Positions 1 through 7,658 of a stretch of DNA of 7,658 bases are shown in pieces; within the stretch, counting starts at the first letter, position 1; every line of letters starts with the position of its first letter. Where the stretch lies: contig JAHWKH010000105.1 in NCBI GenBank assembly GCA_019347995.1, positions 1 through 7,658 of the forward strand. Reading direction: 5' to 3'. The translations under genes were made by a program, and so were the position numbers. This DNA comes from Gemmatimonadota bacterium (GTDB lineage Bacteria > Gemmatimonadota > Gemmatimonadetes > Longimicrobiales > UBA6960). Below the pieces are notes generated by a model. The model did not search any database, was not told where the DNA came from, and saw only the letters and a program-made list of their open reading frames with translations.

Positions 1-36
1 CCCGGAGCTGGTCGGTAGTTCCTGGTTGTTCGATCC

Positions 37-64
37 TTGCATCCCTCCCGCCTCGCGCTACTTT
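37..64 (+). promoter_or_regulatory. Possible sigma-70-like promoter upstream of the arginine decarboxylase
   Basis: TTGCAT at 37-42 and TACTTT at 59-64 are separated by 16 bases, which resembles a -35/-10 pair with only partial matches to consensus. The first 118 bases are less GC-rich than the genes that follow, as expected of a promoter region. An 11-base perfect inverted repeat (TTTCG-A-CGAAA, 77-87) lies just downstream, near where transcription would start, and could be an operator. This is pattern matching only. In a GC-rich phylum the promoter consensus may differ. Confidence 0.25.
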
Positions 65-118
65 GCCGGATTCCGGTTTCGACGAAATCGTCCAATACAT
101 GGAAGGGCCGCACGAGCG

Positions 119-685
119 ATGTCACCTTTGAATACCCAGCACTTTGTCCCGTCCAAGGCGTTCATGACCACGGGTGTGGGAGTGGCGAAGGAGAAGCTGA
201 CCAGCTTCGAAATGGCGCTGCGCGACGCGCACATCGCCCAGCACAACCTCGTGCGCATCTCCTCCATCTTCCCGCCGAACTGCGAGATCGTGGAGCGGGA
301 GGAGGGCGAGAAGCTCCTGCGCCCGGGCCAGGTGGTCTTCTGCGTGCTCTCCGAAGCGTCGACGAACGAGCCCAGTCGCAGGGTCGGAGCCACCATCGGC
401 GTCGCCATGCCGGCCGACCGGGAGCACTACGGCTACATCTCCGAGCACCACGCCTACGGCCAGTCGGAGAAGACCATGGGGGACTACGCCGAGGACCTGG
501 CGGCCCAGATGCTGGCCACGGTGCTGGGCGCCGAGTTCAACCCGGACCAGGCGTGGGACGAGCGCAAGGAGCAGTGGCAGCTCAAGGGCCTGGTGGTGAA
601 CTCGATGAACCATACCATCGTCGCCGAGGCGCCCGAGGACGGGCAGTGGGTGACGGTGGTGGCCGCCGCGGTGTCGTGCGGCTGA
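119..685 (+). CDS. Pyruvoyl-dependent arginine decarboxylase (PvlArgDC)
   Basis: It decarboxylates arginine to agmatine, the first step of the agmatine route to putrescine, and is expected in the cytoplasm. The family makes its own pyruvoyl cofactor by serinolysis. The predicted 188-residue protein carries the self-cleavage site RISSIFPPNC, with the processed Ser-Ser pair at residues 48/49 giving a small beta and a larger alpha chain. Glu109 lies in GYISEHH and matches the catalytic glutamate known from the Methanocaldococcus jannaschii enzyme. The N-terminal FVPSKAFMTTGVG and the C-terminal segment around VNSMNHTIVAEA are also typical of the family, and the length is close to the usual 160-200. 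ATG 119 is chosen because it leaves a short lead before the conserved start and has GGAAGG 12 bases upstream. An in-frame start at 26 would add a stretch unlike the family, and ATG 164 would cut off conserved residues. Its stop overlaps the start of the agmatinase gene, which supports a joint pathway. It is not the PLP-dependent SpeA type. Confidence 0.93.
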   Translation: MSPLNTQHFVPSKAFMTTGVGVAKEKLTSFEMALRDAHIAQHNLVRISSIFPPNCEIVEREEGEKLLRPGQVVFCVLSEASTNEPSRRVGATIGVAMPADREHYGYISEHHAYGQSEKTMGDYAEDLAAQMLATVLGAEFNPDQAWDERKEQWQLKGLVVNSMNHTIVAEAPEDGQWVTVVAAAVSCG

Positions 686-1596
686 GCCTACCCCCCGGGC
701 TCGCCGACCTGCCCTGGGAGCTCCCCCACCGCTTCCTGGGCCTCGACGACGACGCCTCGGCGTTCGAGACCGCGGAGGCCGTGGTCCTGCCGGTCCCCTA
801 CGAGTCCACCACGAGCTACGGTGGCGGCGCGCGCTCCGGGCCGCGCGCGATCCTCGAGGCCTCCCGCTACGTGGAGCTCTACGACCAGGAGCTGGGCACG
901 GACGCCTCCTCGGGAGGGATCCACACCCTCCCGTCGCTGGAGCTCACCAAGGAAGGGGTCGGCCCGGCCATGGAGGAGCTGCGGGCCGCCTATGCCGCCG
1001 TGGCCGACGCGGCCGGCGAGCGCTTCCTCCTCATGCTGGGCGGCGAGCACTCGGTCTCGGCGCCGGCGATCCTGGCGCAGGCCGACCGGCGCGGCGAAGG
1101 TCGCCTCTCGGTCCTGCAGATGGACGCCCACGCCGATCTGCGCCCTCGCTACGAGGGCGCCGTCTGGTCGCACGCTTCGGCCATGGCGCGCGTCCTGGAC
1201 CGGGCCGACGTGACGGCGGTGGGCATCCGGGCCGTGAGCTCCGAGGAGAAGGAGATCCACGAGCGCTCCGACGGCTCGACGATCGTGTGGGCCGACGAGA
1301 TGTGGGAGGACGACGGCTGGATGGACCGGGCCATCGATTCCCTCGGCCCGGACGTCTACCTGACGTTCGACGTGGACTACTTCGATCCCTCGCTGGTGCC
1401 CTCCACCGGCACGCCGGAGCCCGGGGGCGGCGACTGGTACCGCACGCTGCGCTTCCTGCGCCGCGTCTTCGCCGAGCGCCGCGTGGTGGCCGCCGACGTG
1501 GTGGAGCTGGCGCCCACCCCGGGGCTGCACGCGCCCGACTTCCTGGTGGCCAAGCTGTGCTACAAGCTTCTCGCGTACCGGCGCTCCGGCCGCTGA
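676..1596 (+). CDS. speB: Agmatinase (ureohydrolase / arginase family)
   Basis: It hydrolyses agmatine to putrescine and urea using a binuclear manganese centre in the cytoplasm. From GTG 676 the protein has 306 residues, the usual family length. All six metal ligands are visible: His125 in GGEHS, Asp150, His152 and Asp154 in DAHAD, and Asp232 and Asp234 in FDVDYFDPS. The early motif TSYGGGARSGPRAILEASR (about 46-64) and the late VVELAP motif are also family features. The frame is open far upstream, but that part only shadows the decarboxylase gene. GTG 676 overlaps the preceding gene by 10 bases and no strong ribosome binding site precedes it, so translation is probably coupled. GTG 646 is a less likely alternative. 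The family also includes guanidinobutyrase, formimidoylglutamase and proclavaminate amidinohydrolase. The neighbouring arginine decarboxylase makes agmatine the best guess for the substrate. The symbol is given by function. Confidence 0.92.
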   Translation: MRLSLPPGLADLPWELPHRFLGLDDDASAFETAEAVVLPVPYESTTSYGGGARSGPRAILEASRYVELYDQELGTDASSGGIHTLPSLELTKEGVGPAMEELRAAYAAVADAAGERFLLMLGGEHSVSAPAILAQADRRGEGRLSVLQMDAHADLRPRYEGAVWSHASAMARVLDRADVTAVGIRAVSSEEKEIHERSDGSTIVWADEMWEDDGWMDRAIDSLGPDVYLTFDVDYFDPSLVPSTGTPEPGGGDWYRTLRFLRRVFAERRVVAADVVELAPTPGLHAPDFLVAKLCYKLLAYRRSGR

Positions 1597-4108: not shown

Positions 4109-4678
4109 TCAGAGGTCGAACAGCGAAGCCAGAGGGAGGCGAAGGCCCGGCAGGACGGAGCCGCCGTCGAGCTCGGCCTCTCCGATCAGCAGACGTGCTT
4201 TCGTGGCCGAGTCGCACACGGTCACGGTGCGCAGCCGCGGGTCGACGATCCACGCGGCCCGGGCGCCCGCCTCGAAGTATTCGAGCACCTTCTGCTGGAT
4301 CTCCGTAGCCGTGTTGGACGGCGAGAGCACCTCGGCGGCGAGGTCGGGAGCCATGTGCCAGAATCCCTGCCCGTAGGGATCGTCCGCGGGGATCCGCTCT
4401 TTCGATACGAAGGACACGTCGGGAACGCGGACGGTGACCGGGTCCTCCGCGAGCACGAAGCCCGCGTCCGTCAGCACCACGCCGTGTCCGCTGTATCCCG
4501 CCCAATCCACCAGCGAGTGGACGAGCTTCGACAGCACCCGCGCGTGCAGCGGAGCGGGTCGCGGCTCACGGACGAGACGGCCGCCGACGAGCTCCATCCG
4601 GTAGCCGGGCTCCTCCGGGAGCTCCTCGAAGTCGCTGAGCGAGAGCCCGTGCTCTTCTGACCGGCCTGGAAACACCAC
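4109..4678 (-). CDS. Uma2 family (DUF820) PD-(D/E)XK endonuclease-like protein
   Basis: This is a member of the Uma2 family, which adopts the restriction-endonuclease fold. The family is often multicopy in cyanobacteria and other bacteria, and its cellular role is not established. The 189-residue protein shows the expected order: an N-terminal YRMELVGGRLV element (Glu29), VPDVSFV with Asp87, PDLAAEVLSPS with Glu116, and then Lys130 in QQKVLEYFEAG followed by AWIVDP. All putative active-site residues are kept, so it looks intact. Two adjacent GTG codons (4678 and 4675) can start it; a strong GGAGGA lies 4 and 7 bases before them, so the second gives the better spacing. It lies 113 bases after the DUF1499 gene on the same strand and may have its own promoter or be the end of that operon. 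There is no methyltransferase or transposase beside it, so it does not look like part of a restriction system or a mobile element. Confidence 0.88.
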   Translation of the reverse strand: MVFPGRSEEHGLSLSDFEELPEEPGYRMELVGGRLVREPRPAPLHARVLSKLVHSLVDWAGYSGHGVVLTDAGFVLAEDPVTVRVPDVSFVSKERIPADDPYGQGFWHMAPDLAAEVLSPSNTATEIQQKVLEYFEAGARAAWIVDPRLRTVTVCDSATKARLLIGEAELDGGSVLPGLRLPLASLFDL

Positions 4679-4682
4679 CAGG

Positions 4683-4688
4683 TCCTCC
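4683..4688 (-). promoter_or_regulatory. Strong ribosome binding site of the Uma2 gene (GGAGGA)
   Basis: Read on the minus strand, GGAGGA lies 4 bases before GTG 4678 and 7 bases before GTG 4675. It is the clearest Shine-Dalgarno match in the window and argues for independent translation initiation of the Uma2 gene. Confidence 0.65.
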
Positions 4689-4704
4689 GGGATGGGGTGT
4701 CCGG

Positions 4705-4712
4705 TGACGTCA
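4705..4712. repeat. 8-base palindrome TGACGTCA upstream of the Uma2 gene
   Basis: In the 113-base gap between the DUF1499 and Uma2 genes, the minus strand reads TTGACGTCA. This combines a -35-like TTGACG (4713-4708) with a perfect 8-base palindrome. No good -10 element follows at the usual distance. It may mark a regulated promoter for the Uma2 gene or be chance. Confidence 0.25.
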
Positions 4713-4791
4713 AACTACACGCGGATGCCGGGCGGGGACCATGACCGGACGGGCGTCGCACGTCACGGCCACCGCCGGGACCCCGGCCTCC

Positions 4792-5547
4792 TCACTCCTG
4801 CAGCGCGTCCAGGTACTCGCGGATGCGGTCGGCGTTCTTGCCCGCGTCGCCGCGGCCCACGCGCGACACCGAGCGGACGTCCACCACGCTGCCCGTGTCC
4901 GCCGGCCGCACGCGCACGACGACGTCGTCCTCGAAGCCGAACCAGAACGTGGTGGCGGTGGCCTCGATGCGGCCGGCCTCCGGGTCGGCGGCGACGATCT
5001 CCCACCCCTGCGCCCGGGCCGCTTCCAGCGCGCGGTCGAACGCCTCGGCCGGCGCGACGTCGAGCGGCATCGGCTGGATGTCGGGGTAGGCCTCCGCCTG
5101 CTGGGCCGCCACCTCCGGGCCCCCGTGCTCGGGCGGATTGGGGGCGTCGGCGCGCAGGGGCAGGACGGCTTCGAAGCGCGGAGGATCGTCCAGATCGGTG
5201 CTGATGTCGTGGATGGGTGGCGCGGAGGCGGCCTGCCGGGAGACCATGTAGGGCACCGCGAACGTGCCGAGCCCGAGCAGGACCGCCATGAGCGCCACCG
5301 AGAACCCGCGGTACGTGCCACCGGGGCGTGTGTGCCCCAGGCCCGCGAGCCCGACCACGGCGGCGCCCAGGCCGGCGATGGCGCTCCAGCGCAGGACCGT
5401 GAAGCCGGTGCGGAAATCCCAGGCGTCCCAGCGGCTTCCGGGGCCTGCCGCGGCGGCGGCGACGAGTGCGGCGACCGCCAGGGCGAGGGCCGCCAGCGCC
5501 AGCCACGAGATGCGTCCGGTCGTGGGGCTTCTCTCTCCTCCGTTCAT
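4792..5547 (-). CDS. DUF1499 domain protein with three N-terminal membrane segments
   Basis: The function of this family is not established. The 251-residue protein has three hydrophobic segments at about residues 14-35, 48-70 and 82-102. A DUF1499 domain runs from about 112 to the end, which by topology could face either side of the membrane. Family hallmarks are IHDISTDLDDPPRF (112-125), then GWEIV, a GRIEAT stretch followed by a phenylalanine-rich FWFGFEDDVVVRVR strand, and the ending VDVRSVSRVGRGDAG followed by a helix with NADRIREYL. ATG 5547 is chosen because GGGGG lies 6 bases upstream and membrane segment 1 starts soon after. The open frame extends upstream only as a shadow of the ABC exporter gene. 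It follows the exporter gene by 74 bases on the same strand, so the two are probably cotranscribed, but no functional link is evident. Confidence 0.87.
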   Translation of the reverse strand: MNGGERSPTTGRISWLALAALALAVAALVAAAAAGPGSRWDAWDFRTGFTVLRWSAIAGLGAAVVGLAGLGHTRPGGTYRGFSVALMAVLLGLGTFAVPYMVSRQAASAPPIHDISTDLDDPPRFEAVLPLRADAPNPPEHGGPEVAAQQAEAYPDIQPMPLDVAPAEAFDRALEAARAQGWEIVAADPEAGRIEATATTFWFGFEDDVVVRVRPADTGSVVDVRSVSRVGRGDAGKNADRIREYLDALQE

Positions 5548-5621: not shown

Positions 5622-7658
5622 TCAGTCGCCCGTCGGCACCGCCCGCACGCCCACCTCCTCCTCCTCGAACGACGCCTCCAGCATCTGACGCCGGAGCAGG
5701 GTGGCGTACGTCCCGCCCAGGGCCACCAGCTCCGCGTGGGTGCCGCGCTCCACGATGCGGCCCTCGTCCAGCACCAGGATCTGGTCGGCGTGCATCACCG
5801 CCGAGACCCGGTGGCTGATGATGAACGACGTGCGGCCGCGCATGACGTGGCGCAGGTCGTCGAGGATGCGGGCCTCGGTGTGGGTGTCCACCGCCGAGAG
5901 GGCATCGTCGAGCACGAGGATGGCCGGATCGCGCGCCACGGCACGGGCCAGCGTCGCGCGCTGCTTCTGACCGCCGGACAGGTTTATGCCGCGCTCTCCC
6001 AGCAGGGTGCGGTAGCCGCCGGGGAAGGAGACGATGGAGTCGTGGAGCTGGGCGATCTTGGCCGCCTCGACCACCACCTCCTCGGGGTCCTCGTCGTCCG
6101 TGGTGGTCCCGGTGGGGAAGGTGGGCTCGCGCGGGAGCCCGAGCCCGATGTTCTCCTCGATGGTGTCCGAGAACAGGAAGGGATCCTGGGGCACCATGCC
6201 CACCACGCGGCGCAGGTCCGCCGGGTCGTGCTCGCTGAGCGGCCGGCCATCCAGCAGGATCTCGCCCTCGCTGGGGTCGTAGAGCCTGGGGATGAGGGAC
6301 ACCAGCGTCGTCTTCCCCGAGCCCGTGGGGCCCACCACGGCCACCGTCTCGCCGGGGCGCGCCAGGAAGCTCACGTCCTCGAGCACGAGCCGCTCGGTGC
6401 CCGGGTAGCGGAACGCGACGCCCCGGAACTCGATCTCCCCACGAAGCCCGTCCACGGGGGCCGGGCGCGCCGGGACGGGCAGCGAGGGCTCGGCCTCCAG
6501 CACGGTGTTCAGGCGGCCCATGCTGGCGCCGCCGCGCTGGAACAGCGTCACCACCCACCCCAGGGCGATCATCGGCCAGATGAGGAGCGCGAGATAGAAG
6601 AAGAACGCGACGAAGTCGCCGATGGTGATGGCGCCCGCCATGACCAGGCGACCGCCGAACCAGAGCACGATCACCATGGCCACGCCCGTGAGCAGGCCCA
6701 GCAGGGGATGGAACAGCCCCGCCGCCTTCACCAGGTCGACGTTCCTCCGCTTGTACTCGGCGTTCAGCTCGTCGAACTGTCGGGCCTGGGCCTCCTCCTG
6801 GGCGTAGGCGCGCACGATGCGCACGCCGGTGAGGTTCTCCTGCACCAGCGTGGAGAGCGTCGAGAACTGCTCCTGGATCTTCTCGAAGCGGTGGTGGATG
6901 ATCCGGCCGAAGGTGAGCACCACGGGAGGCAGCAGCACCATCGGGATCATGGCGTAGAGCGTGAGGCGCGGGCTGATGTAGAGCATCACCGCGAGCGCCA
7001 GCAGGAAGCCCACGATCGTGTTGACCGAGTACATCACCGCCGGCCCGGCCGCCTGACGCACCGCCAGGACGTCGTTGGTGGCCCGGCTCATGAGGTCGCC
7101 GGTGCGGTTGCGCGCGTAGAACGACGCGTCGAGGCGCATGAGATGGCGGAAGAAGTCGTTCCTGAGATCCACCTCCATGCGCCGGCTGATGCCGTTGAGG
7201 AGCTCGCGCATGCCGTAGCGGGCGGCGCCGCCCACCAGCGCCGTCACCACGATGAGGGCGGCGTAGAGGACGATGCGTCCCATGGTCGCGCCGGGCTCAC
7301 CAAGGGCGTCGATGGCCAGCTTGATGAACCACGGCGCCGCGAGGGCGAACGACTGGGCGACCACCACCAGCAGGAGCCCGAGGAGCATCCCCCGCCGGTA
7401 GGGCCGGTCGGAGGTCATGGCGTCGTACGAGTCCGCCACCGCCAGGATGCGGGACTCCAGCGGAATCTCCTGGCCCTGCATCCGGAACATGGAGTGCTGC
7501 CCGTCGTACCGCTCGTGGTGGTAGGCGGCCACCTCGAAGGGGATGTCGCGCCGCATGGCCACCAGCTTCTGGCCGAGCTCCGTCGCCCGGATGACGTGGG
7601 TGCGCATCACCGCCCTCTCGTCCTCCGTGAGGGCTCCCGACTTGCGGAGGATGGCGTC
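5622..7658 (-). CDS. ABC exporter (TMD-NBD half-transporter) fused in frame to the C-terminal part of an HD-GYP-like domain; 5' end beyond window
   Basis: The main part is a lipid- or drug-exporter-type half transporter, acting as a dimer in the inner membrane. Residues are numbered from the edge codon at 7658. Residues 1-90 are HD-GYP-like, and the exporter runs from Met91 (7388) for 588 residues, a normal full length. Six membrane helices are followed by an ATPase domain with Walker A GPTGSGKT (443-450, Lys449), Q-loop Gln491, a GERG element, signature LSGGQ (560-564), Walker B ending LDD (Asp584, then Asp585) and the H-loop His616 in SHR. Asp585 stands where the catalytic glutamate usually is, as in the MdlA/YheI-type subunit of heterodimeric exporters. 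A second subunit would then be expected but is not in the window. An acidic Thr/Asp/Glu-rich insertion lies between Q-loop and signature. The frame has no stop up to 7658, so the true start is outside. GTG 7610, ATG 7607 and ATG 7388 are internal candidates, none with a convincing ribosome binding site. The substrate is unknown. Confidence 0.85.
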   Translation of the reverse strand, partial: DAILRKSGALTEDERAVMRTHVIRATELGQKLVAMRRDIPFEVAAYHHERYDGQHSMFRMQGQEIPLESRILAVADSYDAMTSDRPYRRGMLLGLLLVVVAQSFALAAPWFIKLAIDALGEPGATMGRIVLYAALIVVTALVGGAARYGMRELLNGISRRMEVDLRNDFFRHLMRLDASFYARNRTGDLMSRATNDVLAVRQAAGPAVMYSVNTIVGFLLALAVMLYISPRLTLYAMIPMVLLPPVVLTFGRIIHHRFEKIQEQFSTLSTLVQENLTGVRIVRAYAQEEAQARQFDELNAEYKRRNVDLVKAAGLFHPLLGLLTGVAMVIVLWFGGRLVMAGAITIGDFVAFFFYLALLIWPMIALGWVVTLFQRGGASMGRLNTVLEAEPSLPVPARPAPVDGLRGEIEFRGVAFRYPGTERLVLEDVSFLARPGETVAVVGPTGSGKTTLVSLIPRLYDPSEGEILLDGRPLSEHDPADLRRVVGMVPQDPFLFSDTIEENIGLGLPREPTFPTGTTTDDEDPEEVVVEAAKIAQLHDSIVSFPGGYRTLLGERGINLSGGQKQRATLARAVARDPAILVLDDALSAVDTHTEARILDDLRHVMRGRTSFIISHRVSAVMHADQILVLDEGRIVERGTHAELVALGGTYATLLRRQMLEASFEEEEVGVRAVPTGD
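7386..7406 (-). other. Junction between HD-GYP-like and ABC exporter sequence (RPYRRG-M)
   Basis: The seven residues R-P-Y-R-R-G-M encoded here fit both partners. HD-GYP domains commonly continue SDRPYR, followed by a few residues and a helix. ABC exporters commonly start with a short elbow reading LRPYR or similar, directly before the first membrane helix. The crossover therefore lies inside a string that both sequences probably shared. This suggests recombination or assembly joining at a short identical stretch. Confidence 0.6.
7389..7658 (-). other. HD-GYP-like phosphohydrolase domain fragment, N-terminal part of the ABC exporter frame
   Basis: The first 90 visible codons match the later part of an HD-GYP domain, a family that commonly hydrolyses cyclic di-GMP. 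The order is DAILRKSGALTEDE at the edge, then a metal-ligand-type His21 (in MRTHV), the His47-His48 pair in YHHERYDG, the IPLESRILAVADSYDAMTSDRPYRRG stretch with Asp76 and Asp79, and the characteristic RPYR. The GYP triplet itself is absent: the aligned place in DGQHSMFRMQG has His-Ser-Met. The earlier half with the HD dyad would lie beyond the window. The helices that normally follow RPYR in this family are missing because the frame passes straight into the exporter. Confidence 0.8.

What the first reader, a model, noticed from the sequence alone, without database searches (positions are those of the whole stretch)
7386..7658. HD-GYP-like domain joined in frame to an ABC exporter at a shared RPYRRG-M string
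The exporter frame is open to the window edge, and its first 90 residues are clearly HD-GYP-like, not exporter sequence. The join is exactly where both families carry an Arg-Pro-Tyr-Arg motif, so neither side shows a gap. If real, a signalling phosphohydrolase piece would be attached to a transporter at its elbow helix, an architecture I do not recognise from known families; a cyclic-dinucleotide link to export would be one speculative reading. If not real, it is a contig chimera made at a shared k-mer, or a deletion that removed the end of one gene and the start of another. The loss of the normal end of the HD-GYP domain and of the exporter's own start favours a deletion or chimera over a designed fusion.
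Basis: partly seen in the sequence, partly recalled or inferred. Interest (0 to 1): 0.75.

Follow-up and report, generated by a model that had tools for sequence, protein, structure and literature searches.

The report
Assembly chimera, not a gene fusion
The apparent joining of a signalling enzyme to a membrane exporter is most likely two genes from unrelated bacteria stuck together by assembly software at a short stretch of DNA they share, so it is probably not a new protein.

Summary
The minus-strand frame is open from the contig edge (7658) to a stop at 5622. Residues 5-91 match HD_5, residues 91-363 ABC_membrane. The switch lies inside R85-M91 (RPYRRGM, window 7406-7386), of which RPYR is conserved in both families.

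It is very probably not a gene. The exporter half is Gemmatimonadota-like: 83% identical to P0002, up to 74% in Gemmatimonadota genomes, with a CcdA gene nearby in 26 of 41 relatives. The HD-GYP half is 81% identical to P0121 and groups with proteins whose nearest named members are mostly Eremiobacterota/Xenobia; the Gemmatimonadota HD-GYP matches printed reach 53%.

All 41 distinct Gemmatimonadota exporters examined keep their own N-terminus; none has HD-GYP DNA on the fetched flanks. Among the best 120 hits of each of three searches no other protein has both domains. Near-copies of the 21-base junction string lie at exporter starts and in HD-GYP genes elsewhere. A string encoding the same peptide in both genes keeps the frame automatically.

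Against: composition shows no seam, and neither closest relative spells RPYRRGM. Reads were unavailable, so a real recombinant is not excluded.

The parts
7407..7658 (-). Partial HD-GYP-type domain (residues 1-84 of the frame), cut by the contig end on one side and by the join on the other; Vulcanimicrobiota-like affinity
   Evidence: HD_5 match; 81% to P0121; fragment tree
7386..7406 (-). Junction string encoding RPYRRGM, compatible with both families; RPYR conserved in both
   Evidence: per-residue comparison; near-copies in both families in other genomes; motif counts
5622..7385 (-). ABCB-type exporter lacking its own N-terminus (about 13 residues in relatives); Gemmatimonadota-like
   Evidence: ABC_membrane and ABC_tran; P0002 83%; relatives with their own N-terminus

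Best explanation
Assembly chimera. The contig belongs to a Gemmatimonadota bacterium up to the exporter's RPYR codons. There the assembler left the true path, through the exporter's own short N-terminus, and followed reads of another bacterium's HD-GYP gene that contains the same string of up to about 21-23 bases. It went on for about 252 bases until the contig ended. The frame is kept because the shared string encodes the same peptide in both genes. Shown: different affinities of the halves, a switch inside the shared motif, no second case among listed proteins, exporters with their own N-terminus in relatives, near-copies of the string in both gene families. Inferred: that the two source genes shared the string in this sample, its exact length, and that software rather than recombination made the join.
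For: Exporter half Gemmatimonadota-like, with CcdA in 26, PLD in 20 and agmatinase in 5 of 41 distinct loci, many of them with short flanks. HD-GYP half 81% to P0121 and grouped with Eremiobacterota/Xenobia members, away from the ten Gemmatimonadota HD-GYPs included; printed Gemmatimonadota matches at most 53%. Switch inside R85-M91. No other protein with both domains among the best 120 of each of three searches. 41 of 41 distinct exporter loci keep an exporter-type N-terminus and lack HD-GYP matches. RPYRRGM occurs in 23 of 119 listed HD-GYPs and 2 of 119 listed exporters. Of 15 near-copies of the string in 395 genomes, 3 lie at exporter starts and 2 in HD-GYP genes. The join lies 252 bases from the contig end.
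Against: No reads were examined. Neither closest relative spells the string: P0002 reads RPYRKRV and P0121 NRPYREGI, so the shared string in the true sources is inferred. No exact copy of the 21 bases was found in 395 genomes and the reversed control pattern hit more often (about 24, my eye count of the table, against 15). GC and GC3 do not differ across the join (0.69/0.98 against 0.70/0.96). The species of the HD-GYP relatives P0121-P0123 is not named.
Confidence: 0.91

Rival explanations
1. A real recombination in one cell: an HD-GYP gene acquired from a Vulcanimicrobiota-like donor recombined with the exporter gene at the shared string, leaving a fused or, more likely, a broken gene in this strain.
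For: The frame is open across the join and composition is uniform.
Against: It needs a cross-phylum transfer and a break at the only string common to both genes, falling by chance 252 bases from the contig end; both genes lose conserved parts; seen once.
Confidence: 0.05
2. A deletion within one genome removed the end of a resident HD-GYP gene and the start of a neighbouring exporter.
For: Gemmatimonadota do carry HD-GYP genes: 156 of 298 genomes at E<=1e-15.
Against: The printed Gemmatimonadota matches are at most 53% identical against 81% in P0121, and none of 41 distinct exporter loci has an HD-GYP match on its flanks; 35 of the 41 hold 1 kb or more upstream.
Confidence: 0.03
3. A functional, selected HD-GYP/exporter fusion that ties cyclic-dinucleotide turnover to export.
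For: Only the open frame and the two domain matches.
Against: Not seen in any other listed protein; HD_5 stops at profile position 149 of 170 here, whereas in P0121 it runs to 168; the exporter lacks the N-terminus kept in 41 of 41 relatives.
Confidence: 0.01

Closest known systems
Gemmatimonadota ABCB-type exporter (ABC_membrane + ABC_tran), e.g. P0002; named by sources as ABC transporter ATP-binding protein or multidrug efflux pump
   Same: Residues 85 onward of the frame, 83% identical to P0002
   Different: Own N-terminus, MSHLRSVLPYY in P0002, is missing here
HD-GYP-domain proteins of Vulcanimicrobiota (Eremiobacterota) type, e.g. P0121, P0126, P0127
   Same: Residues 1-91, 81% identical to P0121
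   Different: N-terminal region and HD motif lie off the contig; the end of the domain after RPYR is replaced by exporter
Chimeric metagenome contigs
   Same: Sequences of two organisms joined at a short shared string; [quoted passage not shown]
   Different: Not proven by reads here; the assembler and k are unknown

Membership tests
HD-GYP phosphodiesterase | HD_5/HD domain match | tested here: met
   HD_5 E 1.5e-15, partial, profile 65-149 of 170
HD-GYP phosphodiesterase | HDxGK metal-binding motif | not testable with these tools
   would lie beyond the contig end; present in P0121
HD-GYP phosphodiesterase | GYP tripeptide (motif recalled) | tested here: not met
   QHS here, LHS in P0121; relatives are nevertheless named HD-GYP by their sources
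HD-GYP phosphodiesterase | Complete C-terminal end of the domain | tested here: not met
   HD_5 ends at 149 of 170 here, 168 of 170 in P0121
ABCB-type exporter | ABC_membrane followed by ABC_tran | tested here: met
ABCB-type exporter | Own N-terminus before RPY | tested here: not met
   present in 41 of 41 distinct relatives, replaced here
Genuine HD-GYP/ABC fusion | Same architecture in an independent genome | tested here: not met
   none among the 119 non-self rows listed by each; lower hits not inspected
Assembly chimera | Halves of different origin | tested here: met
Assembly chimera | String shared exactly by the two source genes at the join | tested here: inconclusive
   RPYR common to both families; source DNA not held; closest relatives differ in the last three residues
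Assembly chimera | Break in read coverage or graph branch at the join | not testable with these tools
   no reads held

The most novel reading that the evidence does not exclude
A genuine in-frame HD-GYP/ABC exporter fusion, made by cross-phylum transfer and recombination at a 21-23 base shared string in an unsampled Gemmatimonadota strain, possibly tying signalling-nucleotide turnover to export.
Probability: 0.03. Interest if true: 0.6.

Novelty: not a real feature. Interest (0 to 1): 0.06.

Why it matters
Mainly as a caution. Peptide motifs that recur in unrelated families can create false joins that are in frame by construction, so an open frame and a gap-free domain boundary are not evidence of a real fusion. 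If the fusion were real it would be an architecture not found in the searches made here, but nothing beyond the open frame supports it.

Tried and rejected
Own-genome search: no whole genome is held for the window. One scan of viral contigs for relatives of P0121 found none, so DNA of a close HD-GYP relative was not obtained and the shared string could not be measured in the presumed source. Composition was tried as evidence of a seam and shows none. The 21-base string with up to 2 mismatches is not enriched in Gemmatimonadota: 15 hits in 395 genomes against about 24 for the reversed control (my eye count of the table); only the genes in which the hits lie are used. Structure prediction was not run, since the fold of a chimera would not bear on the question.

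Literature: HD-GYP with ABC transporter, fusion protein and domain architecture gave 2 papers, listing seen only, neither about such a fusion by title or abstract start; HD-GYP with fused and ABC exporter gave none. Two searches on assembly chimeras were seen as listings; of PMC7641418 passages were seen. These four searches do not show that such a fusion is absent from print.

In some searches my query for the first gene was in the wrong frame (called PvlArgDC, and again through the same query file); those rows are ignored and one search gives the right frame.

Full report
What is there. The minus-strand frame from the contig edge (7658) to the stop at 5622 is open, 678 residues. Pfam places HD_5 at residues 5-91 (profile 65-149 of 170), ABC_membrane at 91-363 and ABC_tran at 426-587. 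NCBIfam matches the rest to SmdA- and MsbA-like exporters, below the curated cut-offs of the rows shown.

Where the switch is. I aligned the frame to 59 of the 119 non-self exporters listed and 60 of the 119 non-self HD-GYP proteins listed, and counted identities per residue. Up to D84 the frame is HD-GYP (59/60 at D84). From G94 it is exporter (59/59, against 2/58 in HD-GYP). Between them R85, P86, Y87 and R88 are common to both. R89 and G90 are a minority in exporters (5/58 and 8/58). The full string RPYRRGM occurs in 23 of 119 HD-GYPs and in 2 of 119 exporters, P0083 and P0087. The two closest relatives do not have it: P0002 reads RPYRKRV, P0121 NRPYREGI. The join therefore lies within 7386-7406, possibly two bases further, and the length of the string shared by the true sources is not known.

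The exporter half is at home. Its closest listed relative, P0002, is 83% identical over 88% of the frame and lies on a 4.46 Mb contig; the listed rows that carry an organism name are Gemmatimonadetes, Gemmatimonadota or Longimicrobiales. In 298 Gemmatimonadota genomes 70 have a match at E<=1e-200, up to 74% identity. Of 41 distinct exporter loci, 26 also hold a match to this window's CcdA, 20 to its PLD-family protein and 5 to its agmatinase; many loci are short, so these are lower bounds, and 15 show no CcdA.

The HD-GYP half looks foreign. The next named ones are P0124, labelled Candidatus Nitrosotenuis, P0126 (Eremiobacteraeota) and P0127 (Eremiobacterota). In a tree of 111 fragments, made of the window piece, 79 of the 119 non-self rows, 20 further proteins that I picked, and 11 fetched loci, it groups with P0121-P0123 (support 0.94), then P0124 (0.85), then P0127 and P0266, a Xenobia protein (0.78). 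All ten Gemmatimonadota HD-GYPs included lie outside the 85-tip clade (0.965) that holds it. The fragment is only 91 residues and one inner node has support 0. Xenobia is a class of Vulcanimicrobiota. In 298 Gemmatimonadota genomes 156 have a match at E<=1e-15; none of those printed exceeds 53% identity, and the printed list is cut, best E-values first.

The architecture was not seen again. Three searches gave 7978, 2537 and 1266 hits, of which the best 120 each are listed. None of the 119 non-self rows of each shows both HD and ABC domains. The third search spans the junction, so a true homologue should lead it; self scores 197 bits, the next hit 84 with 49% coverage. A few lower rows show longer local alignments (up to 89% coverage) but HD-type domains only. 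Unlisted hits were not inspected.

Relatives keep the exporter's own N-terminus. From 51 Gemmatimonadota exporter locus entries, 41 remained after repeats of the same place were dropped. All 41 show an exporter-type N-terminus before the RPY-like motif. None of the 51 has an HD-GYP match at E<=1e-3 with three queries. 35 of the 41 hold at least 1 kb upstream; the median is 1461 bases.

The string recurs. With at most 2 mismatches the 21 bases occur 15 times in 395 Gemmatimonadota genomes, never exactly. Three are exporters at this very site (L091, L092, L095; L095 reads YFRPYRRGMAVG), two are HD-GYP genes (L083 at DRPYRRAM, L086 at ERPYRPGL) and ten match neither query. The reversed control hit about 24 times (my count by eye), so the string is not enriched; the point is only that G+C-rich genomes can spell the motif almost alike in both families.

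Mechanism. An assembler that works with short k-mers can cross between two such genes; short overlaps giving chimeric contigs from different organisms are described in PMC7641418 (passages seen). Because both genes encode the same peptide over the shared string, the frame is kept without selection. The foreign piece is 252 bases long and runs to the contig end, as expected of a false extension that soon runs out. That software and not recombination did this is inference; the reads, the assembler and its k are not known to me. GC and GC3 are alike on both sides, so composition neither supports nor opposes a seam.

Consequences for the protein. At the join the HD-GYP domain loses its end (HD_5 position 149 of 170, against 168 in P0121) and the exporter its own start, so even a real junction would more likely break both genes than make a new one. 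The cyclic-dinucleotide reading has no support here. I score the finding as an artefact.

Noticed in passing
window 2-1596 (+): A pyruvoyl-dependent arginine decarboxylase (PF01862, E 1.6e-55) is followed directly by an agmatinase (TIGR01230, above its cut-off): two successive steps from arginine to putrescine side by side.
   Followed up: partly
window 4109-5484 (-): A Uma2-type gene and a DUF1499 gene lie between CcdA and the exporter; neither was matched in any of the 41 distinct exporter loci (tblastn E<=1e-5), though many of these are short.
   Followed up: partly
window 7658-7407 (-) and P0121-P0124: In this HD-GYP clade the GYP tripeptide is replaced (QHS, LHS, NSM, YST-like readings after HHE..DG) although the HHE and DG residues remain.
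   Followed up: no
P0124: A protein labelled Candidatus Nitrosotenuis (an archaeon) falls among Eremiobacterota/Xenobia-type HD-GYPs, which may be a mislabelled or contaminated bin.
   Followed up: no
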